Source of the DNA: Actinopolyspora halophila DSM 43834
Lineage (GTDB): Bacteria > Actinomycetota > Actinomycetes > Mycobacteriales > Pseudonocardiaceae
Length of the DNA: 64,000 nt
Assembly (NCBI RefSeq): GCF_000371785.1
Contig: NZ_AQUI01000002.1
Location: 1,963,276-2,027,275, forward strand
Direction of reading: 5' to 3'
Shown: positions 14,235 through 47,031 of the stretch, piece by piece
Layout of the letters: every line of letters begins with the position of its first letter
Numbering within the stretch: the stretch's first letter is position 1
Made by a program: the position numbers and the translations under genes
Notes under the pieces: generated by a model
What the model saw: the letters and a program-made list of their open reading frames with translations, nothing else
The model's database searches: none
Told to the model about the DNA's origin: nothing

Positions 14235-15434
14235 ATGGCCAGTGTTTACGTCGTCGGGACCTTCGACACCAAGCGAGCCGAGCTCGACCACGTCGCAGAC
14301 CTGCTCCGGGGGAACGGTTCCTCGGTGGTGACAGTGGACCTGAGCACCTACGGGACCGCGAGGGCCGCCGTCTCCGTGCCCGCCGAGTCGGTAGCCGTGC
14401 ACCACCCGTACGGCCGCGGGGCGGTTTTCACGGGGGAGCGCGGTTCGGCGGTCTCCGGCATGGCCGAGGCGTTCGAGGGATTCCTGAACTCGCGTGCGGA
14501 CGTGGCCGGTGTCCTCGGGCTCGGCGGGTCCGGGGCCACGGCGATGATCGCTCCGGCCATGCGCTCCCTGCCGGTCGGCGTCCCCAAGTTCATGGTCTCC
14601 ACCGTCGTGTCGGGGGAGGTCTCCGGTTACGTCGACGCGAGCGACATCACGCTGCTGCCTTCGGTCACCGACATGGCGGGGCTGAACCGGATCTCGCGCC
14701 GAGTGCTCGCCAACGCGGCCAACGGACTCCACGGCGCGGTCACGGCCGGAACGGCCTTCGGTGCTGAGGACAAGCCCGCTGTAGCCCTTTCCATGTTCGG
14801 CGTCACCACGACCTGCGTTTCCGGCGTCGTGTCCGAGCTGGAGAACGAGTACGACCCCCTGGTCTTCCACGCGACCGGCACGGGAGGTCGTGCGATGGAG
14901 AAACTGGCGGGGGACGGCCTGCTGCGAGCTGTGCTGGACATCACCACCACGGAGGTGTGCGACCTCGTCGCGGGGGGTGTGATGAGCGCGGGGGAGGAGC
15001 GTTTCGACTCCCTGGCGCGCAGTGGTGTTCCCTATATCGGTTCGTGCGGCGCTCTGGACATGGTGAATTTCGGGACGCGGAAAACGGTTCCGGAAAAGTA
15101 CGCCGACCGGAACCTTTATGAGCACAACCCCCAGGTGACCCTGATGCGAACCACCCCGGAGGAGTGTGAGCGCATCGCTCTGTTCATCGCCGAGAAACTC
15201 AACACGTTCGTCGCCCCGGTTCGTTTTCTGCTTCCCGAGGGCGGGGTTTCCCTTTTGGACGTCCCGGGGGGTCCTTTTTACGATCCCGAGGCGGACGCCG
15301 CCCTCTTCGAGACCCTGCGAAGCCACGTCGTGCAGGACGAAAAGCGTCGTCTCGTCCGGTTGCCTTACAACATCAACGATCCGGAGTTCGTGCGCGAACT
15401 GTTGACCGCTTTTTCCGAGGTGGTGAAAGAGTGA
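14235..15434 (+). CDS. Tm-1-like ATP-binding domain protein (UPF0261)
   Basis: 399 residues matching the UPF0261/Tm-1 N-terminal family (opening [21 protein letters not shown]; glycine-rich [29 protein letters not shown]). The tomato Tm-1 resistance protein has this fold fused to a TIM-barrel domain; here the second domain is the next gene, coupled through a GTGA overlap at 15431-15434. Bacterial members are presumed ATP-binding, but the reaction is unknown to me. ATG at 14235 keeps the conserved N-terminus. Confidence 0.88.
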
Positions 15435-37371: not shown

Positions 37372-37529
37372 CGGGCGGGTAAACCCACTTCCGGTGAGCG
37401 GGGTTCCTCTCGCGGGCTGTGGGGCCGTCCCGAGCGGCAGCCGATTCCCGGAAGGCGCGGGTGAGCTCCGCGGCGTCCGGTCGCTGAGAACGTGCAGGAG
37501 CCCGAACCGACCCGGTTGCGAGGATCGTT

Positions 37530-38246
37530 GTGCAAGAGTTCGGCCGAGTGCTGACGAACGTGTCGGGAGCGGTTCCGGCTTCCGTGGTCGCGCTGCTCGC
37601 CCTCGTGCTGGTCGGTTACCGCGGCACCTGGCGGGTGCTGCGCAACGTGGTGACCATCGCCCACGAGGCGGGGCACGCCCTGGTGGCTCTGCTCAGCGGG
37701 CGCAGACTCAACGGGATCCGACTGCACTCGGACACCTCGGGACTGACCGTTTCCACCGGGCCCGCGCGGGGCCCGGGGATGGTCCTGACCCTGTTCGCGG
37801 GCTATCCGACCGTCTCGCTACTGGGGGCCGTGGCGGCCTGGACGGTTTCCGCCGAGCACGTGGAGGTGATGCTCTGGACGGCAGTGGGGGCGTTGGCGCT
37901 GTTGCTGATCGCGCTGCGCAATCTCTACGGGGTGCTGTCCGTGGTGCTCACCGGACTCGCTCTCGTGGCCGTGATCCGGTGGGGCACCCCTCCGGTCACT
38001 GTGGTGTGCGCCGAACTGCTGAGCTGGTTGCTGCTGTTGGGGGGTGTGCGGCCGTTGTTCGAGCTGGCCGGCAAACGCCGCAGGGGTCGGGCATCCGATT
38101 CCGATGCGGACCAGTTGGCCAGGTTGACCGGTGTGGCGGGGGGATTCTGGATGGCGATCTGGTTCGTGATCTCCGTGGGGCTGCTGGTTCTGGGGGCGCG
38201 CTGGTTGCTGGACCTAGTGGGTTGTCAGGCAACTTTGGTCGGGTAA
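37530..38246 (+). pseudogene. M50 family metallopeptidase, 5' part, interrupted
   Basis: The first 228 codons of a membrane metallopeptidase with a zinc-binding HEAGH motif (TIAHEAGHALVALL, about residues 44-57) and several membrane segments. After 38215 the native sequence stops and an IS630 end begins, so the frame runs nine codons into the element. The native C-terminus (PPLTEFSALVSG) is at 46581-46620, after a second copy of codons about 125-228. Joined, they would give a 240-residue protein. GTG 37530 has GAGG upstream. The shortened protein might be made, but I treat the gene as broken. Confidence 0.9.
37902..38215 (+). repeat. 314-bp direct repeat, left copy (R1)
   Basis: Matches 46267-46580 with a constant offset of 8365 and no indel; the translated products are identical and the bases agree wherever I compared them. 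It lies inside the M50 gene and ends exactly at the terminus of IS630 copy 1. The two copies bracket the 8,051-bp IS-rich insertion. Confidence 0.95.
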
Positions 38247-39396
38247 TGGGGCCAGGTGCGGATGGGTGAGTCGGTGGCGAATCCGGTCTTGGGCTGAGCA
38301 CGGGCGTTGCGCCAGCGGAGATAGGCGCGGATCGCGGCGTTTTGCTCGGTGTGGCTGCGATGCGAACTAGCCCGTGGCGGCGAACTGGAGATTCGATCCA
38401 GTTCAGCCAGGATCCGTAGGTCGGTAGGAACACCAACTCGACCTTGTTGGCAGCGGCCCATGCGCGCACTGCGGGGTGGCGATGCGGGGAAAAGGTGTCG
38501 CAGACGAGGTAGAGCTTCTCGCCCGGCCACCGTGCCCGCAAGCTCGTGAGCAGGTCGAGGAACTCGCGATGGCGTTTGCGGTCCCGGATCCGGTAGTGGA
38601 TTTTGCCAGCGGTCAGGTCCAGCGCGGCCAGCATGTGCATGACCCTGTCGCCCGCGGCGATAGGTTGCCCGTTGGCGCCGAGGCTTGCGTAACGGGCGCC
38701 CGGCTTTGCCGGTGCGGGGCAGCAGATTTAGTGGTCCGAACTCGTCGACGCAGACCACCCGGCCGTCGGCTGGTGGCTGGTCATACAGCTCGAGGATGCG
38801 GGCCATCTTGGTGATGAATTCAGGATCAGTGGAGGCCTTCCACGTGGTGGTGGCCTGCCAGGACACGCCCCCGGCCCGCAAAATCTGCCGCAGCGTCTCG
38901 ATCGAGACCGGCACCACCGAGCACCGTTGGACGAGGTGATCACGCAGCTTGCTCAGAGACCAGGTCGAAAACGCCGTGATGCCCCAGTCAGACGGGGACG
39001 TCCGGGCGATCAGGCAGATGCGTTCCCGCAGCTGTTCACCGATCCCTCTCGGACGTCCCCCACTCCATTGTGAGGGCCAGCGCGTCGAACCCCCGCTCGT
39101 TGAACGCATGGATCACATCCCGCACATAGTCCTCGCTGACCTGCATCAACGAGGTGATGTCACGAACTGCCTGTCCCTGTCCGGACATCAGCACCACGAT
39201 CGCCCGCCGCAGTTTGACCGGGTCCTTCGCCGTGCGACTGATTCGCTGCAGCTTGCGACCTTCCTCCATCGATAAGGACCGGACGAACACCTCCGGACGA
39301 CGAGCCATCGCCACCTCCCACATACAACACGGGAGACCAGCCTGACCCATCACCACAAAGACCAATTACCCACCCAACGATCTTGGACGGGCCACT
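38216..39396 (-). mobile_element. IS630-type element, copy 1
   Basis: Bounded by CTAG at both ends (38214-38217 and 39395-39398), as expected for an IS630-type element that inserts at CTAG and duplicates TA. The imperfect terminal repeats start GTGGGTTGTCAGG and GTGGCCCGTCC and share GGGTAAT. It is the exact reverse complement of 41584-42764 (positions sum to 80980), with no indel. Identity extends from 38211 to 39398. Confidence 0.93.
38225..39308 (-). pseudogene. IS630-type transposase, frameshifted
   Basis: The transposase is spread over three frames. The N-terminal helix-turn-helix half (MARRPEVFVRSLSMEEGRKL to TMEWG) shifts near 39060 into SGGRPRGIGEQLRERICLIA through the first catalytic Asp (VVCVDEFG). 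A second shift near 38660 leads to MHMLAALDLTAGKIHYRI, the second Asp (LVCDTFS) and the Glu (LNWIE). A deletion/shift near 38390 then leads to the HRSHTEQNAAIRAYLRWRNA tail. The first shift could be programmed; the others look inactivating. IS630 copy 2 carries the same lesions. Confidence 0.88.
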
Positions 39397-39542
39397 AGCC
39401 TAGGCGTGGTGGCGAGGGGCGAGGCAAGGGATGTCTACGAGATCGGATTGATCGTTATCGACCTGTGTGTTATAAGGGCTGAGCAGGTGAAGATATATCC
39501 GTATTGCCTTCTTTGTCTTGTTTAAGTTTGCTCATCTGAGTC
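39397..39542. other. Orphan spacer between IS elements
   Basis: About 145 bp, AT-richer than host genes, with no gene. It begins GCCTAGGCGTGG and is the first non-IS sequence of the inserted segment. Confidence 0.5.
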
Positions 39543-40521
39543 GACTGAGGTGATCTCAACGAGGTAGTAGCGGGCGCATGAGATCGGTGGCATGGATGCG
39601 CTGGGATGAGGCGGAGATCCCCTGGTAGGACTGGTCTCACCACAAGATCAAGTCCCCATACCCAAAGGCTCTCCGTGATTGCTCATCCTGTCATCCTCGA
39701 TGTATCCCGTGAGCTCGCCCGTCAGGTGGCGTGGCTGCTGCAGTCCGAACGTCGTCGGGGCACCCGCGGGGGAACGCGTGTGCTGACCTGCTTTTGGCAG
39801 GCCGTGCTGGGGCTACGCTGGTTTCGCCACCGCGCCGACCCGGAACGATTAGGTCGAGATCACCGGCTCTCACGGGCCACAGCGTATCGCTATCTCGATG
39901 ATGTGATCGACGTGCTCGCCGACCAGGCCCCGGACCTGCATCAGGCTGTGAAGCAAGCCCACGAGCACGACATGGCCTACGTGATCCTCGACGGCACCGT
40001 GATCACGACCGATCGCGTGGGTGAGAAAACCACGAGCGTGCCAGGGAAAACCATCGACTTGTGGTACTCCGGCAAAGCAGGTGAACACGGCGGCAACATC
40101 CAAGCCCTCTCAGCGCCGAACGGGTTTCCTCTGTGTGGCTCCGATGTGGAACCCGGCTCGACACACGCTCTCACCGCCGCCCGCGAGCATGCGCTGGGCG
40201 CGCTGTACGCCGCCGCCTCACGGGGGCTGCCCACGCTGGCCGACGGCGGCTACGAGGGCACCGGAATCGGAGTGCACACCCCGATCAAACAACCCCCCGG
40301 CAACCAGGCCCTCGATGCCGACAACCGCACCTACAACGCCCTACTACGCGGGCTGCGCAGCCTCGGCGAACGCGGATTCGCCCTACTTACCGGCCGCTGG
40401 CGCACCTTGCAACGCATCACCGCCAGCCCCAGCAAGATCGGCAGCATCATCCAAGCCGCAGTCGCCCTGCCCCACCTCGAACACCGCCGGCCCGAAACTC
40501 GCTGAGATCACCTCACTGAGA
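39543..40521 (+). mobile_element. IS element with imperfect terminal repeats (IS5-superfamily type)
   Basis: Ends carry TGAGGTGATCTCAACGAG (39546-39563) and CTCGCTGAGATCACCTCA (40498-40515), inverted repeats differing at one base in this core. The element fits tightly around one transposase gene. Exact boundaries and target duplication are uncertain by a few bases. Confidence 0.78.
39675..40505 (+). CDS. Transposase, DDE_Tnp_4-type
   Basis: 276 residues with an N-terminal helix-turn-helix (LGRDHRLSRATAYRYLDDVI) and a DDE nuclease domain (AYVILDGTVITTDRV, YSGKAGEHGGNIQALSAP, TLADGGYEGTGIG). GTG 39675 starts the conserved MIAHPVILDVSREL; the frame opens earlier but is not conserved in the family. 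The frame is intact, so this is the only transposase in the island that looks functional in a single reading frame. Confidence 0.85.
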   Translation: MIAHPVILDVSRELARQVAWLLQSERRRGTRGGTRVLTCFWQAVLGLRWFRHRADPERLGRDHRLSRATAYRYLDDVIDVLADQAPDLHQAVKQAHEHDMAYVILDGTVITTDRVGEKTTSVPGKTIDLWYSGKAGEHGGNIQALSAPNGFPLCGSDVEPGSTHALTAAREHALGALYAAASRGLPTLADGGYEGTGIGVHTPIKQPPGNQALDADNRTYNALLRGLRSLGERGFALLTGRWRTLQRITASPSKIGSIIQAAVALPHLEHRRPETR

Positions 40522-40580
40522 AGATCTACTCTAGAAGCTGAGGTAGTTTGGGAAGTTTGAGTGCTTGACAAGAGCGCGTC

Positions 40581-40945
40581 TCATTTGGGGATGTTCTTGT
40601 AGCAGGTCAGTGCTGCGGCGAGGGCGAGGAATCCGGTGACGTTGGTGGCTGTGCGTTCCCAGCGAATGGCCGGGCGGCGGTAGTTCAGCAGCCAGGAGAA
40701 GCTGCGTTCAACGCGCCAGCGGTAGCGTCCGAGTGTGGCGCTGGATTCGACGCCGGTACGGGTGATGCGGGGCACGATGTTCCGGGTGCGCAGTCAGCGG
40801 CGTAGGTCGTCGTAGTCGTAGCCTGTGTCGGCGTGCAGCTTGCCGGGTCGGCGGCGTCGTGGTCCGCGAGGCGACCGCACGTCCGGGATCGCGTGGACAC
40901 GAGGCTTGGGGGCGTTCCTGTCGTGGGTGTTGGCCCCGGAGACTG
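40581..40945 (-). pseudogene. Truncated IS5-type transposase (C-terminal part, leftward)
   Basis: Encodes the SGANTHD-like region, KLHADTGYDYDDLRR, an in-frame stop in place of the conserved Trp codon (near 40795), then RNIVPRITRTGVESSATLGR and the DDE-type C-terminus ending ALTCYKNIPK. The N-terminal half is missing. Confidence 0.8.
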
Positions 40946-41392
40946 CCACCGACAGTTGACCGGGGCAAAACCAGTTCGAAGCACCACCTGGTCTGCGACG
41001 GCGGTGGCGTTCCTCTGGCCGTCACGCTCACCGGCGGCAACCGGCACGACATCACCCCACTGCTGCCGCTGGTCGAGAAGATCCCGCCGGTGCGAGGGCG
41101 ACGCGGGCGACCGCGCCGCAAACCCGACGTGCTCGTCGCGGACCGCGGCGAGGACGACGAGCCCTACCGCCACCACCTCCGATAACGCGGAATCACTCCG
41201 CTGATCAGCCGGAAACGCACCCGCGACAACAACCAGCCCGTCCGCTGGGTCGTGGAACACACCCTGGCACTGCTACACCAGTTCCGACGCCTGGCAACCC
41301 GATGGGAACGCCGCACCGACATCCACCACGGCTTCCCCACCCTCGCCACCAGCCTCATCAGCTGGCGCCGACTCCCCAAACAAATGCGTTAG
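40946..41392 (+). pseudogene. Truncated IS5-type transposase (C-terminal part, rightward)
   Basis: Encodes DRGKTSSKHHLVCDGGGVPL, then LTGGNRHDITPLLPLVEKIP and DVLVADRGEDDEPYRHHLR, a premature stop near 41183, and the tail VRWVVEHTLALLHQFRRLAT ending KQMR. The first half is missing. Confidence 0.8.
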
Positions 41393-41401
41393 GAGCTCCT
41401 A

Positions 41402-41583
41402 CGTTACCCGCTCGAACGCGCCATCTCCCACCTGAAAAACTGGACCATCCTAGCCAGCCGATATCGCCGCACACTTGTTCACCTTCAACGACCCCTCCAC
41501 ATCCTCACCAGATTCCGACGAATCCGAGAGTCCTGGCAAACAGTTCAGTGCATAGTATTCGACATTCTGAAATTCATAAAACT
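41402..41583 (+). pseudogene. Remnant of another transposase C-terminus
   Basis: One frame reads PLERAISHLKNWTILASRYR followed by RPLHILTRFRRIRES (about 41410-41540), resembling the C-terminal end of actinobacterial DDE_Tnp_4 transposases. No other part of the gene remains. The last 60 bp before IS630 copy 2 are AT-rich and unassigned. Confidence 0.5.
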
Positions 41584-42764
41584 AGTGGCCCGTCCAAGAT
41601 CGTTGGGTGGGTAATTGGTCTTTGTGGTGATGGGTCAGGCTGGTCTCCCGTGTTGTATGTGGGAGGTGGCGATGGCTCGTCGTCCGGAGGTGTTCGTCCG
41701 GTCCTTATCGATGGAGGAAGGTCGCAAGCTGCAGCGAATCAGTCGCACGGCGAAGGACCCGGTCAAACTGCGGCGGGCGATCGTGGTGCTGATGTCCGGA
41801 CAGGGACAGGCAGTTCGTGACATCACCTCGTTGATGCAGGTCAGCGAGGACTATGTGCGGGATGTGATCCATGCGTTCAACGAGCGGGGGTTCGACGCGC
41901 TGGCCCTCACAATGGAGTGGGGGACGTCCGAGAGGGATCGGTGAACAGCTGCGGGAACGCATCTGCCTGATCGCCCGGACGTCCCCGTCTGACTGGGGCA
42001 TCACGGCGTTTTCGACCTGGTCTCTGAGCAAGCTGCGTGATCACCTCGTCCAACGGTGCTCGGTGGTGCCGGTCTCGATCGAGACGCTGCGGCAGATTTT
42101 GCGGGCCGGGGGCGTGTCCTGGCAGGCCACCACCACGTGGAAGGCCTCCACTGATCCTGAATTCATCACCAAGATGGCCCGCATCCTCGAGCTGTATGAC
42201 CAGCCACCAGCCGACGGCCGGGTGGTCTGCGTCGACGAGTTCGGACCACTAAATCTGCTGCCCCGCACCGGCAAAGCCGGGCGCCCGTTACGCAAGCCTC
42301 GGCGCCAACGGGCAACCTATCGCCGCGGGCGACAGGGTCATGCACATGCTGGCCGCGCTGGACCTGACCGCTGGCAAAATCCACTACCGGATCCGGGACC
42401 GCAAACGCCATCGCGAGTTCCTCGACCTGCTCACGAGCTTGCGGGCACGGTGGCCGGGCGAGAAGCTCTACCTCGTCTGCGACACCTTTTCCCCGCATCG
42501 CCACCCCGCAGTGCGCGCATGGGCCGCTGCCAACAAGGTCGAGTTGGTGTTCCTACCGACCTACGGATCCTGGCTGAACTGGATCGAATCTCCAGTTCGC
42601 CGCCACGGGCTAGTTCGCATCGCAGCCACACCGAGCAAAACGCCGCGATCCGCGCCTATCTCCGCTGGCGCAACGCCCGTGCTCAGCCCAAGACCGGATT
42701 CGCCACCGACTCACCCATCCGCACCTGGCCCCATTACCCGACCAAAGTTGCCTGACAACCCACT
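41584..42764 (+). mobile_element. IS630-type element, copy 2
   Basis: Exact inverted copy of 38216-39396, bounded by CTAG at 41582-41585 and 42763-42766. The left flank is ATAAAAC and the right flank GGTCGCC. The two copies enclose about 2.2 kb of IS debris. Confidence 0.93.
41672..42755 (+). pseudogene. IS630-type transposase, frameshifted (copy 2)
   Basis: Carries the same three breaks in frame as copy 1 (near 41920, 42320 and 42590), starting MARRPEVFVRS and ending PTKVA. Identical lesions mean both copies descend from an already damaged element, so a source in trans or a DNA-level duplication made them. Confidence 0.88.
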
Positions 42765-42965
42765 AGGTCGCCGAATTAGAAACTCTTGATAGAAAAGTTA
42801 CACAACACTTATTGACTTTGATCCAATCTTAGGATATTTTTTGTGCGCTGACCAAGATTGGAGTTATAACTTCTATAAATAGATGTACACACTCAACCTG
42901 TAGGCAAGCCTAAAAAGCTAACTCATTGCTAGTTAAAATCAACTTAGACAGGTGAAGATAATAAA
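42765..42965. promoter_or_regulatory. AT-rich upstream region of the secreted-protein gene
   Basis: Distinctly AT-rich. TTGACT near 42814, a 17-bp spacer and TATTTT is a plausible promoter; TTGGAG/TATAAA further on is another but with short spacing. CAGGTGA before ATG 42966 is a weak ribosome site. Confidence 0.4.
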
Positions 42966-43364
42966 ATGAAAAATATGAGTCGCCTGATTGCTCTAGCAGC
43001 TGGAACGGCCATGGCTTTGATGCCACTCGGAACAGCCATGGCTAGCGAATCAAACTTACTAGACAAACAATGCAACGATGGATACGGGCACATCAGCGGC
43101 GCTCAAACACCAGTCAAGACAGGACCTAACGAAGTTTGGGGAATGGGAACTTACGAAAACGTAAGTAATTATCCAGCATATGTAAGAGTGTACAAGCAGG
43201 TCGACTGGGGAATAGATACCGAAGTCGCTTACGCCGAAGGACTTCAAAATGGGGAGCCAATCAATGCAACTGGCCCTCTCGAGGGCGCTGGATCCTACTA
43301 CACCTATGTAACCGGACTAAGCAACACTGAGGTATGCCGAAGCAGCACGATGTATCTAGAGTAA
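42966..43364 (+). CDS. Small secreted protein on an AT-rich island, unknown function
   Basis: 132 residues. A textbook Sec signal peptide (MKNMSRLIALAAGTAMALMP, cleavage after AMA near residue 27) leaves a mature part of about 105 residues. The mature part is acidic, rich in Tyr, Gly, Asn and Thr, with two cysteines (in KQCNDG and EVCRSS) that could form a disulfide. I recognise no family. Codons end mostly in A or T, unlike every host gene here, so it was acquired from a lower-GC source. It has its own promoter region and a strong terminator. A toxin, inhibitor or surface factor are all possible. Confidence 0.75.
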   Translation: MKNMSRLIALAAGTAMALMPLGTAMASESNLLDKQCNDGYGHISGAQTPVKTGPNEVWGMGTYENVSNYPAYVRVYKQVDWGIDTEVAYAEGLQNGEPINATGPLEGAGSYYTYVTGLSNTEVCRSSTMYLE

Positions 43365-43400
43365 CATATTTTTCTAGCTAGTAATTAAACCTAAAAAAGC

Positions 43401-43445
43401 AGACTACCTGGAATAGTTTCCCGCAGAAACTATTCCAGATAGTCT
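43401..43445 (+). terminator. Strong intrinsic terminator
   Basis: AGACTACCTGGAATAGTTTC, loop CCGCA, then its reverse complement with one G-U-compatible change, followed by ACGATTTT. It is a 20-bp stem, 37 bp after the secreted-protein stop, and unlike the short GC stems used by host genes. Confidence 0.92.
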
Positions 43446-43609
43446 ACGATTTTCGATGCATCCGAAAATACGAATGCAATACAGATAGAACGTTATTCAG
43501 AAGCGTACGACAGTATGGAGATTAACGGTTCCGTCGGAGTACGATCATGTTCCGATCAAAGAATAAGATCGATCCGAGGAACCGTTGCAGTGCCAGTCTG
43601 CCGTAGGAC
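43446..43609. other. Remainder of the AT-rich island
   Basis: About 165 bp without a gene, ending at the TTA where the IS5-type array begins. Confidence 0.4.
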
Positions 43610-43612
43610 TTA

Positions 43613-44475
43613 GAGGTCGTCTCATTTGGCGAGGTGTTTGTAGCAGGTGATCGCGGCGGCCAGGGTCAGCATTCCTGCGAGGTTGCTGGCTGTGCGTTCC
43701 CACCGCACGGCCAGACGGCGGTAGGTGAACAACCAAGCAAAGGTGCGTTCAACGCGCCACCGATACCGGCCCAGGCGGGCGTGGGACTCGACGCCGACAC
43801 GGGCGATCCGCGGGACGATGTTGCGGTCGCGCAGCCATGTGCGCAGGTGTTCGTAGTCGTAGCCTTTGTCGGCATGCAGCTTGGCCGGCCTGCGCCGTCG
43901 GGGGCCGCGGCGTGAGCGCACGGCCGGGATGGCGTGCACCAGGGGTTTCAACGCGTTCATGTCGTGGGTGTTGGCCCCGGATACCGCCACGGCCAGCGGG
44001 AGCCCGCCCGCCTCGGTCAGGATGTGCAGTTTCGAGCCGCTCTTGCCGCGGTCGACGGGGTTGGGTCCGGTTGCGGTTCCCCTTTTTTCGCGCGAACGCT
44101 GGCGCCGTCCACGATCGCTCGTTCCCAGTCGAGGTCCCCGGCCGAGCCGAGTTCGTCGAGCACGGCCCGGTGCAGCCGCCGCCATACCCCGGCCTGGGTC
44201 CACTCCTGAAAACGCCGGTGCGCGGTGGGCACACTGACCCCGAACGAGGGTGGCAGTTGCCGCCAGGAACACCCGCTGGTCAGCACGAACACGATGGCCG
44301 TGAATACGGAACGATCGCTGGCCCTGCGGCGCCCACCGCCCTGGTGACGCACCCCGTGTTCGGGAAGCAGTGGTGCTGCGATGTCCCACAACTCATCCGG
44401 CACCAACCGACGCGACAGATCATCCATCGATGATCATCATGCCAGCACCCTTAACCCGCCTATCAAGACACCCTG
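43613..44475 (-). mobile_element. IS5-family (IS427-type) element B
   Basis: 863 bp flanked by TTA on both sides (43610-43612 and 44476-44478). Ends are imperfect inverted repeats (GAGGTCGTCTC against CAGGGTGTCTT). It carries a two-frame transposase on the minus strand. Confidence 0.88.
43622..44427 (-). CDS. IS5-family transposase B (orfA/orfB, -1 frameshift)
   Basis: orfA (from ATG 44427) encodes MDDLSRRLVPDELWDIAAPL to VRAKKGEP with the DUF4096-type N-terminus. orfB, in the -1 frame, carries NPVDRGKSGSKLHILTEAGG, SGANTHD, ADKGYD and RWRVERTFAWL (DDE C-terminus), ending KHLAK. The switch lies at an AAAAAAGGGG run, the standard slippery site of IS427-type elements. Both parts are otherwise intact, so it may be active. 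Confidence 0.85.
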
Positions 44476-44478
44476 TTA

Positions 44479-45344
44479 GACCGTGTCCTACGTGGTCGGT
44501 GATCGTTGATCTCGGTGTGAGTGGTGGCAGGTGGGACTGGGTCGTCCCGGAAGGACTGTGGGAGATCGTCGAGCCGTTGCTGCCGGCGGCGAAGGTGCGT
44601 CCGCAGGGTGGCGGGACGGCGAATATCGATGATGAGGCGGTGTTTGCAGCGATCGTGTACGTGCTAGTCAGCGGGTGTTCGTGGCGGCACCTGCCGCCGT
44701 GCTTCGGCGCCTCGAAGTCCACAGTGCACCGCCGCTTCCGGATGTGGACCCAGGCCGGAGTATGGGGACGACTGCACCGGGCGATCCTGGACCGGCTGGA
44801 CGCCGAAGAGCTGGTCGATCTTTCCCGAGTCCTGCTCGATACCTCCCATGTGCGCACCAAAAAGGGGGCGAACACACAGGCCCGAGCCCCGTGGACCGGG
44901 GCAAACCAGGTTCCAAGCTGCACATCCTGTCCGAAACAACCGGACTGCCCCTCGTCGTCGGTGTCTCAGCCGGCAACACCCACGACAGCCACGGCCTAAT
45001 CCCCATGGTCTCCGGTTTCCTCTCGAGACACGACCCCCATCGAGGCCATCACGCCAAGCCTCGACGATGCTACGCCGACAAAGCCTACGATCGCCCAGAC
45101 CTGCGGCGATGGCTGCTCGGCAAGCACATCACCCCACGCATCGCCCGCAAAGGAATCGACTCCAGCCAGCGACTTGGACGCTATCGCTGGAGGATCGAAC
45201 GCACTTTCTCCTGGCTATCCGGCTACCGACGCCTGTCCCCACGCTACGAACGCGATCCACGCCTCTACCTGGGCTTTCTCGGACTCGCCGCAGCACTCAC
45301 CTGCTACCAAACACCTCCACAAAAACACCACGTAGGACACGGTC
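44479..45344 (+). mobile_element. IS5-family (IS427-type) element C
   Basis: 866 bp with near-perfect ends: AGACCGTGTCCTACGTGGT at 44478-44496 and its exact reverse complement at 45327-45345. It is flanked by TTA on both sides, each TTA shared with the neighbouring element. Confidence 0.92.
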
Positions 45345-45391
45345 TTAGAGCCCCTAACGCATTTGGTGTGGGAGTCGGCGCCAGCAGATGA
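44499..45391 (+). CDS. IS5-family transposase C (orfA/orfB, -1 frameshift)
   Basis: orfA from GTG 44499 (PEGLWEIVEPLLPAAKVRPQ, HRRFRMWTQAGVWGRLHRAI) shifts -1 at a CAAAAAGGGGG run into orfB (GPSPVDRGKPGSKLHILSET, SAGNTHD, ADKAYDRPDLRRWL, RYRWRIERTFSWL). orfB has no stop inside the element; it reads through the terminal repeat and ends at 45391 in element D, adding about 15 foreign codons. Confidence 0.82.
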
Positions 45392-46200
45392 GGCTGGTGG
45401 CCAGGGTCAGGAATCCGTGGTGGATGTCGGTGCGGTGTTCCCACCGGGTTGCCAGGCGTCGGAACTGGTGTAGCAGTGCCAGGGTTTGTTCGACGACCCA
45501 GCGCACGGCTTGGTTCGTGTCCTGGGTGCCACGACGGCTGATCAACGGGCGGATCCCTCGTTGCCGCAGCGGATGTCGGTACGTGTCGTGGTCGTAGCCG
45601 CGGTCAGCGACGAGGACCTCGGGCTTGTGTCGGGGATGTCACGACGGCTGCGTACGGGCGGGATTTTCTCGACCAGCGGCAACAGTGGTGTGATGTCGTT
45701 GCGGTTGCCGCCGGTGAGCGTGATAGCCAGCGGCACACCACCACCGTCGCAGATCAGGTGGTGCTTCGAGCCGGTCTTGCTCCGGTCGAGGAGGGCTCGG
45801 TCCTGGCTCGGGGCCCCCTTTTTTGGCGCGAACATGCGAGGCGTCCACACACGCCCGCGACCAGTCGATCTGTCCGGCCGCGTGGAGCTCGGCCAGCAGC
45901 ACCTCGTGGAGCTGGTCGATCACTCCTGTTTCCTGCCAGTCCCGCAGGCGCCGCCAGCACGTCATCCCCGACCCGAATCCCAGCTCCTGCGGCAGGTCTT
46001 CCCATCCGATTCCGGTGATCAGCACGAACAGGATGCTCGGCACCACCTGCCGTTCCGGTAACGGCTTCGACCCCGCCCGCCTTGCCGGACGCACCGGCAA
46101 CAGCGGCTCGATCCGCTCCCACAACTCGTCCGATACCACCCACGGCGCCACCAGCAACCAAGACCATCCCAGCCCGGTAGCACCAACGTGCTAGGGCCTC
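45348..46200 (-). mobile_element. IS5-family element D
   Basis: 853 bp with ends GAGCCCCTA and TAGGGCCTC (imperfect inverted repeats), flanked by TTA at 45345-45347 and 46201-46203. It is the same type as the right half of the chimera at 40946-41401. Confidence 0.88.
45354..46157 (-). pseudogene. IS5-family transposase D, probably defective
   Basis: The N-terminal part (MLVAPWVVSDELWERIEPLL to HVRAKKGGPEPG) and the central part (SKTGSKHHLICDGGGVPLAI, LTGGNRNDITPLL) are joined by an apparent +1 or -2 shift at AAAAAAGGGGG. A further shift near 45640 loses the DRGYD region before the tail (QAVRWVVEQTLALLHQF). Two shifts suggest the copy is inactive, though the first may be physiological. Confidence 0.75.
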
Positions 46201-46203
46201 TTA

Positions 46204-46620
46204 GTGAAGGCGGTCTGTCCCTGCAAGGACGAGGAAGATGGGCACGTCGCAAATCCTATGCACTTATTGCTGATCGCGCTGCGCAATCTCTACGGGGTGC
46301 TGTCCGTGGTGCTCACCGGACTCGCTCTCGTGGCCGTGATCCGGTGGGGCACCCCTCCGGTCACTGTGGTGTGCGCCGAACTGCTGAGCTGGTTGCTGCT
46401 GTTGGGGGGTGTGCGGCCGTTGTTCGAGCTGGCCGGCAAACGCCGCAGGGGTCGGGCATCCGATTCCGATGCGGACCAGTTGGCCAGGTTGACCGGTGTG
46501 GCGGGGGGATTCTGGATGGCGATCTGGTTCGTGATCTCCGTGGGGCTGCTGGTTCTGGGGGCGCGCTGGTTGCTGGACCTGCCACCGCTGACGGAGTTCT
46601 CCGCGCTGGTCAGCGGCTGA
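46204..46620 (+). pseudogene. M50 family metallopeptidase, 3' part
   Basis: 46267-46580 repeats codons about 125-228 of the M50 gene, and 46581-46620 supplies the native C-terminus PPLTEFSALVSG and stop. The 63 bp before the repeat (46204-46266) are foreign and happen to keep the frame open from a GTG next to the TTA. This half lacks the HEAGH zinc site and cannot be an active peptidase alone. Confidence 0.9.
46267..46580 (+). repeat. 314-bp direct repeat, right copy (R2)
   Basis: Same sequence as 37902-38215. Its left border joins foreign DNA (TCCTATGCACTTA) and its right border continues into the native end of the M50 gene. Confidence 0.95.
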
Positions 46621-47031
46621 ATCTCGTCCGAGCGGTTGCCAACGCGGCGCCGGTTGGACGAGCATCGTCGCAGTGGCGGTGTGGTGGTCGGTGCCGGAAC
46701 GGCGGCTCGTGCCGCGGAGTCCGCTCGTTGCCGGCGTCCGGACCTGTTCGCCGTGCCGAGGGGAGTCCGGGCTCCCGCGGAGAGCCGAGTCCGCGGTCCC
46801 CTTCCGAGGCGACCGGGTCGACCGCCGGAGTGGTGCGTTCGGACGTTTTGTCGGGATCACTCGGTAGTCTCGGGGAGCACGGGGCGGAACCGTCGCGGGG
46901 AGCGAGCCGTGGGCGGGAGTGGCGTGCCGGTTGCACTGGGGCGTGCGGCTCCGGTACGCCGCACGTGCGGCGGTGGTTTCCCGTCGCCCTTCGGGCGGCG
47001 GGGTTCGGTGCGGTCGCTAGGGAGAGGTGAG
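46621..47031. other. Intergenic region upstream of the PAS-GGDEF-EAL gene
   Basis: 411 bp of GC-rich DNA without a supported gene. The ribosome site GGAGAGGTGAG precedes the next gene; no promoter or operator was resolved. Confidence 0.45.

What the first reader, a model, noticed from the sequence alone, without database searches (positions are those of the whole stretch)
37902..46580. 8-kb insertion in an M50 peptidase gene, bracketed by a 314-bp direct duplication of that gene
Positions 37902-38215 and 46267-46580 are collinear with no indel and appear identical. Codons before the first copy and after the second complete one M50 gene, so the pre-insertion allele can be rebuilt exactly. Known transposases duplicate 2-15 bp, and integrase att cores are far shorter. 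Possible origins are single-crossover integration of a circle carrying 314 bp of the gene, template switching during repair, or a larger duplication trimmed by IS-adjacent deletion. I could not decide between them.
Basis: seen in the sequence. Interest (0 to 1): 0.85.

Follow-up and report, generated by a model that had tools for sequence, protein, structure and literature searches.

The report
IS-rich insert with 314-bp target duplication
In an Actinopolyspora bacterium, an 8-kb pile of decayed jumping genes lies between two identical 314-letter copies of the end of a membrane-protease gene, so the first gene copy stays practically whole; how the copy arose is not settled, but nothing found here requires a new kind of jumping enzyme.

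Summary
The 314-bp exact direct repeat is real (0 mismatches, no extension). The genus is Actinopolyspora. Sister alleles G008 and G002/A. biskrensis read straight through the site, so repeat and insert are derived here. The 8051-bp insert is a heap of IS: a defective IS630 pair, an IS5_4-type element, a chimeric IS scar, and three IS5-type elements stacked on one TTA. An AT-rich stretch carries an orphan ORF. The six IS with readable ends have 2-3 bp duplications, so none of them explains 314 bp. The gene is hardly harmed: copy 1 keeps the whole M50B domain and a normal length. Copying the insert from elsewhere in the genome is disfavoured; three tested non-IS parts lack a full second copy. 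I favour recombination or repair: single crossover of IS-bearing DNA holding 314 bp of the gene, then IS-linked trimming. Staggered-break end joining is a close rival. Real, but probably ordinary; mechanism undecided.

The parts
37530..38246 (+). M50B peptidase gene ending in copy 1: 228 native codons, a synonymous 229th, then 9 residues read from IS630
   Evidence: PF13398 at residues 20-221; length compared with 11 relatives
37902..38215 (+). Copy 1 of the 314-bp direct repeat
38217..39395 (-). IS630-type element copy 1, transposase frame broken; TA at 38215-38216 and 39396-39397 within CTAG
39398..39546 (.). Non-IS DNA without a known relative (interrupted by the next element)
   Evidence: no second copy in the genome; one marginal 25-bp plasmid hit
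39547..40514 (+). IS5_4-type element with ACT on both sides
   Evidence: NF033581 95.6 bits, below cut-off 140; PF13359; ends
40572..41398 (.). Chimeric IS: ISc-like 5' part fused near 40956/40957 to an inverted ISb-like part; deletion or fusion scar
   Evidence: 77.3% over 379 bp and 82.2% over 439 bp
41399..41545 (+). Transposase-like C-terminal fragment (by eye)
   Evidence: PHROGs transposase hit E 0.042; no Pfam match
41546..41584 (.). Possible left end of an AT-rich unit (inverted partner of the right end)
   Evidence: inconclusive
41585..42763 (+). IS630-type element copy 2, identical to copy 1
42766..43612 (.). AT-rich cargo
   Evidence: 43% GC; absent from the 9 other genus genomes searched
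42966..43364 (+). Orphan small ORF, looks secreted (by eye)
43613..44475 (-). ISc, IS5-type, TTA on both sides; four more full copies in the genome
44479..45344 (+). ISa, IS5-type, TTA on both sides
45348..46200 (-). ISb, IS5-type, TTA on both sides
46204..46266 (.). Right end of the insert, non-IS
   Evidence: no second copy in the genome; 1 of 296 other family genomes has a weak match
46267..46580 (+). Copy 2 of the 314-bp direct repeat
46581..46620 (+). Original 3' end of the M50B gene

Best explanation
A recent, one-off insertion of IS-bearing foreign DNA at the 3' end of an M50B peptidase gene, made by recombination or repair rather than by a transposase. Preferred route (inferred): a circular IS-rich molecule that had earlier picked up 314 bp of this gene integrated by single crossover over those 314 bp. 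The insert was then shortened by an IS-linked deletion (the chimeric IS at 40572-41398). Ordinary IS insertions overlay it: IS630 into CTAG, IS5-type elements into TTA or another 3-bp target. Shown: the exact repeat, the empty sister allele, six IS with 2-3 bp duplications, the chimeric IS, the practically intact first gene copy, and the lack of a full second copy of three non-IS parts. Inferred: the circle, the order of events, the trimming.
For: Exact 314-bp repeat, nothing beyond. Empty alleles in G008 and G002/A. biskrensis without indel. ISc is 863 bp with a 3-bp TTA/TAA duplication in 5 of 5 full copies read; ISa and ISb sit on the same TTA. IS630 relatives: 4 of 4 left ends and 2 of 4 right ends read in G001, and both ends in G002, carry CTAG, so this IS makes a 2-bp TA duplication. 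Chimeric IS: ISc-like 379 bp (77%) joined to inverted ISb-like 439 bp (82%). Non-IS parts 39390-39560, 42770-43611 and 46190-46266 have no full second copy in the genome. 0/314 differences (95% upper bound 0.95%) against 25-26 of 413 to the nearest sisters means recent, unless gene conversion keeps the copies alike.
Against: No circle with the 314 bp was found: plasmids, phages, viral contigs by peptide, no third place in the genome. No replication or integration gene was recognised in the insert beyond IS transposases. How a circle would first acquire an internal 314-bp gene piece is unexplained. No comparable repeat in 11 other IS-bearing stretches, so no recurrent process is seen.
Confidence: 0.38

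Rival explanations
1. Staggered double-strand break with fill-in and capture: two opposite nicks 314 bp apart opened the gene, both overhangs were filled in, and end joining sealed a captured fragment of IS-rich foreign DNA between them. The result mimics a giant target-site duplication.
For: One step gives exactly this structure, and both borders may then be arbitrary. Neither border is a proven IS end: the right-end inverted repeat is weak, and the IS630 at the left border sits on a CTAG formed by the junction.
Against: Precedent is recalled only; the one paper search on paired nicks listed a single paper, on human cells (listing and abstract start only).
Confidence: 0.25
2. Unequal exchange between two insertions: one mobile element entered at 38215 on one sister chromosome and a related one at 37901/37902 on another. 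Recombination or replicative transposition between them left the 314 bp on both sides.
For: The geometry fits exactly. The insert holds several IS that could recombine. The right border may be an element end: AGTGCATAG-K-ATT-CGAC recurs inverted at 41547.
Against: The left border is not a matched end of the same element: only GCNTAGG is shared. The sister alleles have CTGC at 38214-38217, not CTAG, so IS630 could not have entered there by its usual target.
Confidence: 0.14
3. Transposition with a long variable target duplication, as by IS1549/IS1634, of an element whose right end is 46266 and whose left end is 41546 (or 38216), later filled with other IS.
For: 314 bp lies within the 8-514 bp reported for IS1549/IS1634. 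The right end has an inverted partner at 41547: only 6 of 2000 Markov sequences of the 1.3-kb non-IS core reach its score anchored at the end. The pattern, written from these two sites, occurs nowhere else in 297 family genomes.
Against: No IS1634 transposase over cut-off in the genome; in the insert only an 18.4-bit hit of an IS5 protein. Against the whole insert the repeat is ordinary: 53 of 300 Markov sequences score as well unanchored, and anchored 8 of 500 Markov sequences, 22 of 185 host, 6 of 129 cargo and 4 of 27 39-kb pseudo-ends. Its left partner lies 3.3 kb inside the border.
Confidence: 0.08
4. Assembly artefact or mixed population: two alleles, one with an element at 38215 and one with an element at 37902, were merged, or two contigs were joined wrongly at the identical IS630 pair.
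For: The 1188-bp exact inverted pair is longer than short reads. No second assembly of this species was at hand; how this one was made is unknown to me.
Against: The window has no N. The ISs with readable ends have clean short duplications.
Confidence: 0.08
5. Template switching during replication repair copied the insert from other places and returned 314 bp upstream.
For: The last 5 bases of copy 1 (GACCT) also flank the second IS630 copy, a possible microhomology, although CTAG targeting accounts for part of it.
Against: Three tested non-IS parts of the insert have no full second copy to have been copied from. Both ends of IS630 copy 1 are exact IS ends at CTAG, as transposition gives.
Confidence: 0.07

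Closest known systems
IS1549 (Mycobacterium smegmatis) and IS1634 (Mycoplasma mycoides): long variable direct repeats
   Same: A long exact duplication of target DNA around inserted mobile DNA; 314 bp is within the 8-514 bp reported (PMC2266710, passages).
   Different: No IS1634-family transposase over cut-off in the insert or genome; no matched ends at the two borders. The same review gives 5-6 bp as typical for the IS1634 family.
Single-crossover (Campbell-type) plasmid integration (recalled)
   Same: A direct repeat of the homologous segment on both sides of the inserted DNA, with no bases lost.
   Different: No plasmid, phage or viral contig with the segment found. The insert now shows only IS remains, a short cargo and unassigned DNA.
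IS-rich scars of IS630- and IS5-family elements
   Same: NCBIfam: IS5_3 two protein pieces over cut-off and three just below it; IS5_4 and IS630 pieces below cut-off. Short 2-3 bp duplications. Chimeric IS.
   Different: Flanked by a 314-bp target duplication that none of these IS explains.

Membership tests
IS1634/IS1549-type transposition | IS1634-family transposase in or near the insert | tested here: not met
   NF033559: 0 matches over cut-off in G000; its 2 sub-cut-off places (23.3 bits) overlap DUF4096 hits of 269-aa frames. In the insert only an 18.4-bit hit of an IS5 protein.
IS1634/IS1549-type transposition | terminal inverted repeats at both borders of the duplicated target | tested here: inconclusive
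   Right end has a partner 3.3 kb inside the left border, not at it; significance depends on the null used.
IS1634/IS1549-type transposition | long, variable target duplications at several insertion sites | tested here: not met
   End pattern found only at these two sites in 297 family genomes, own included; no comparable repeat in 11 other stretches of G000.
Single-crossover integration | direct repeat of a homologous segment with a precise empty allele | tested here: met
Single-crossover integration | a circular molecule carrying the segment | tested here: not met
   No match in plasmids, phages, viral contigs by peptide, nor a third place in the genome. Absence from these collections is weak evidence.
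End joining at a staggered break | Ku and LigD encoded in the genome | not tested
IS5-type ISc (43613-44475) | precise ends with 3-bp target duplication | tested here: met
   5 of 5 full copies read: 863 bp with TTA or TAA on both sides.
IS630-type element | insertion at TA within CTAG | tested here: met
   Both window copies; in G001 relatives 4 of 4 left ends and 2 of 4 right ends (the other two CCAG); both ends of the G002 relative.
IS630-type element | intact transposase frame | tested here: not met
   Single frames of 359, 359 and 362 aa in three plasmid relatives; in the window element single-base insertions and a 17-bp gap break the frame; both copies are identical.

The most novel reading that the evidence does not exclude
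The AT-rich unit from 41546 to 46266 (about 1 kb without its later IS passengers) is a new kind of small, non-autonomous mobile element. Its ends read AGTGCATAG-K-ATT-CGAC, it carries a secreted-looking orphan protein, and it entered with a target duplication of hundreds of bases, sparing the gene it hit.
Probability: 0.06. Interest if true: 0.7.

Novelty: new member of a known kind. Interest (0 to 1): 0.27.

Why it matters
Long target duplications around mobile DNA lacked a mechanism when reviewed in 2008: the review says no model had been proposed for IS1549/IS1634 (passage). This locus shows a similar product without a recognisable transposase of that family. It also shows how such a duplication can save the gene that is hit, so surviving insertions in genes may be biased towards duplicated ones (inference). 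It is a single case in one assembly and stays an anecdote until a second is found.

Tried and rejected
Long-duplication transposase: looked for IS1634 in ten insert and gene translations and in the genome; nothing over cut-off.

Right-end remnant as an IS end: 46190-46266 has one weak match in the 296 other family genomes (G166, 84%, query 16-59). There it overlaps the start of a protein that looks to me like a histidine phosphatase (by eye). Not pursued.

Terminal inverted repeat of the right end: seen by eye. Unanchored, 53 of 300 Markov sequences of the insert and 7 of 300 2-kb AT-rich ones score as well. Anchored: 6 of 2000 for the 1.3-kb core, 8 of 500 for a Markov insert; pseudo-ends 22 of 185 (host), 6 of 129 (cargo), 4 of 27 (39440-39544). 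Inconclusive.

Inversion between the two IS630 copies to explain the left border: it would leave two right-type ends in the same direction, so I kept the present order (reasoning only).

IS630 at the left border as cause of the border: the insert holds 14 CTAG sites (paired flanks of each IS630 counted once, two IS630-internal sites left out) against 3 in the rest of the window. Landing on the junction CTAG is then about 1 in 14 if sites are equal.

Cargo ORF 42966-43364: no plasmid or phage match; 22 viral-contig pattern hits, none a relative; no NCBIfam, Pfam or PHROGs family; one weak match (31%, E 8.3e-4) besides itself in 397 order genomes.

Plasmid matches to 39399-43611 (333 records, the 20 listed mostly annotated as transposases) and to 45348-46266 (468 records): no listed record holds the whole stretch. 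Small pieces 41399-41581 and 39390-39560 gave one marginal hit each.

Rfam on 37500-47000: nothing at gathering score. ARAGORN: no tRNA in the window.

Literature: searches (Actinopolyspora halophila + insertion sequence + genome) gave 0 papers. PMC2266710 and PMC10132070 were seen as passages only; the IS1549 paper is not held and the IS1634 original was not looked up.

Full report
Observation. The two 314-bp stretches are identical and do not extend. A search of the own genome found these two places and no third. The window is G000:C2:1963276-2027275 of a 5.35-Mb, two-contig genome. The genus is Actinopolyspora: the best named relative of the M50 protein is A. biskrensis at 97%, and G002 has a contig of the same length as that record (620731). 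I recall that A. halophila DSM 43834 has a genome of this size; no call names the species.

Empty allele. Ten of ten genus genomes, own included, hold the M50 gene. Only G000 has two long matches; second matches elsewhere are 31-42 bases. The flanks joined at 38215/46581 align without a gap at the joint to G008 (91.6% over 2045 bp) and to G002/A. biskrensis (89.9% over 1540 bp). Duplication and insert are therefore derived in this species. The nearest sisters differ at 25 or 26 of 413 bases around copy 1, while the two copies differ at 0 of 314. The event is recent, or the copies are kept alike by gene conversion.

The gene is spared. Copy 1 encodes 228 native residues plus a synonymous 229th codon; the Peptidase_M50B match covers residues 20-221. 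It then reads 9 residues of IS630 sequence. From the TIAHE motif to the stop it has 197 residues, against 191-200 in the 11 relatives read (9 Actinopolyspora, 2 Saccharopolyspora). Copy 2 is a C-terminal fragment. 'Insertion in an M50 gene' is true by position but misleading in effect. That copy 1 is functional is inferred, not shown.

The insert, 38216-46266. IS630-type copies occupy 38217-39395 (minus) and 41585-42763 (plus), in a 1188-bp exact inverted repeat. They are the only full copies found in the genome; the two other matches are a 67% piece and a 40-base piece at one place. Their frame is broken relative to three plasmid relatives with single frames, yet the two copies are identical. 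The second was probably moved in trans, or the copies were made alike by conversion (inference). An IS5_4-type element lies at 39547-40514 with ACT on both sides. A chimeric element at 40572-41398 joins an ISc-like part (77%) to an inverted ISb-like part (82%). A short transposase-like piece follows at 41399-41545 (PHROGs E 0.042; no Pfam match). Then come an AT-rich cargo and three IS5-type elements in a row on one TTA: 43613-44475, 44479-45344, 45348-46200. ISc has four more full copies in the genome; all five are 863 bp with a 3-bp TTA/TAA duplication. None of the six IS with readable ends explains 314 bp.

Borders. The left border falls inside a CTAG (C38214 to G38217) formed by gene plus insert, into which IS630 copy 1 went. 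CTAG is rare in the rest of the window (3 sites) and frequent in the insert (14 sites), so this is not a striking coincidence. The right border may be an element end, but the statistics are mixed: favourable only against the 1.3-kb non-IS core (6 of 2000), unfavourable against the whole insert and real pseudo-ends.

Mechanism. A long-duplicating transposase of the IS1549/IS1634 type would explain the length (8-514 bp), but none is found over cut-off. Copying from elsewhere in the genome is disfavoured, because three non-IS pieces have no full second copy (one search lists one 61-base, 79% inverted match of the cargo to itself). The pieces 41399-41584 and 40515-40571 were not searched alone in the genome. 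What remains is single crossover of a molecule carrying 314 bp of the gene, capture at a staggered break, or exchange between two insertions. I prefer single crossover plus IS-linked trimming, at 0.38 for that whole statement. The broader claim, that recombination or repair and not a long-duplicating transposase made the repeat, I put at about 0.75.

Control. Eleven other stretches of the genome, ten around DUF4096 hits (two of them sub-cut-off) and one around the IS630-like piece, were compared with themselves at 60 bp or more and 90% or more. They show only an ISc pair and a 162-bp, 90% pair 14 kb apart. So the long repeat is so far a single case in this genome; most of the genome was not examined in this way.

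Verdict. This is a clean example of a duplicative, gene-sparing insertion of IS-rich DNA. The mechanism is unsettled, but nothing here requires a new kind of system.

Noticed in passing
41585-42763 and 38217-39395: Two identical IS630 copies share a broken transposase frame, including a 17-bp gap against plasmid relatives, and no other full copy was found in the genome; a defective element seems to have moved recently.
   Followed up: partly
43610-46203: Three different IS5-type elements are stacked on one TTA target, neighbours sharing a TTA.
   Followed up: partly
42966-43364: Orphan small ORF that looks secreted (by eye) in 43% GC DNA inside a 66% GC window; no match in plasmids, phages or viral contigs and one weak match in 397 order genomes.
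   Followed up: yes
38214-46191: CTAG is rare in the rest of the window (3 sites in about 56 kb) but frequent in the insert (14 sites), a mark of foreign DNA.
   Followed up: partly
L142:8759-11717 (G000:C2:2554700-2574600): Two ISc copies in direct orientation 2.1 kb apart, 99.9% identical.
   Followed up: no
L022:9003-9808 (window equivalent about 46900): A. biskrensis has about 0.8 kb of extra sequence just downstream of the M50 gene; the same neighbourhood is variable in two species.
   Followed up: partly
L149:494-655 and 14450-14611: A 162-bp direct repeat, 90% identical, 14 kb apart in another stretch of the genome.
   Followed up: no
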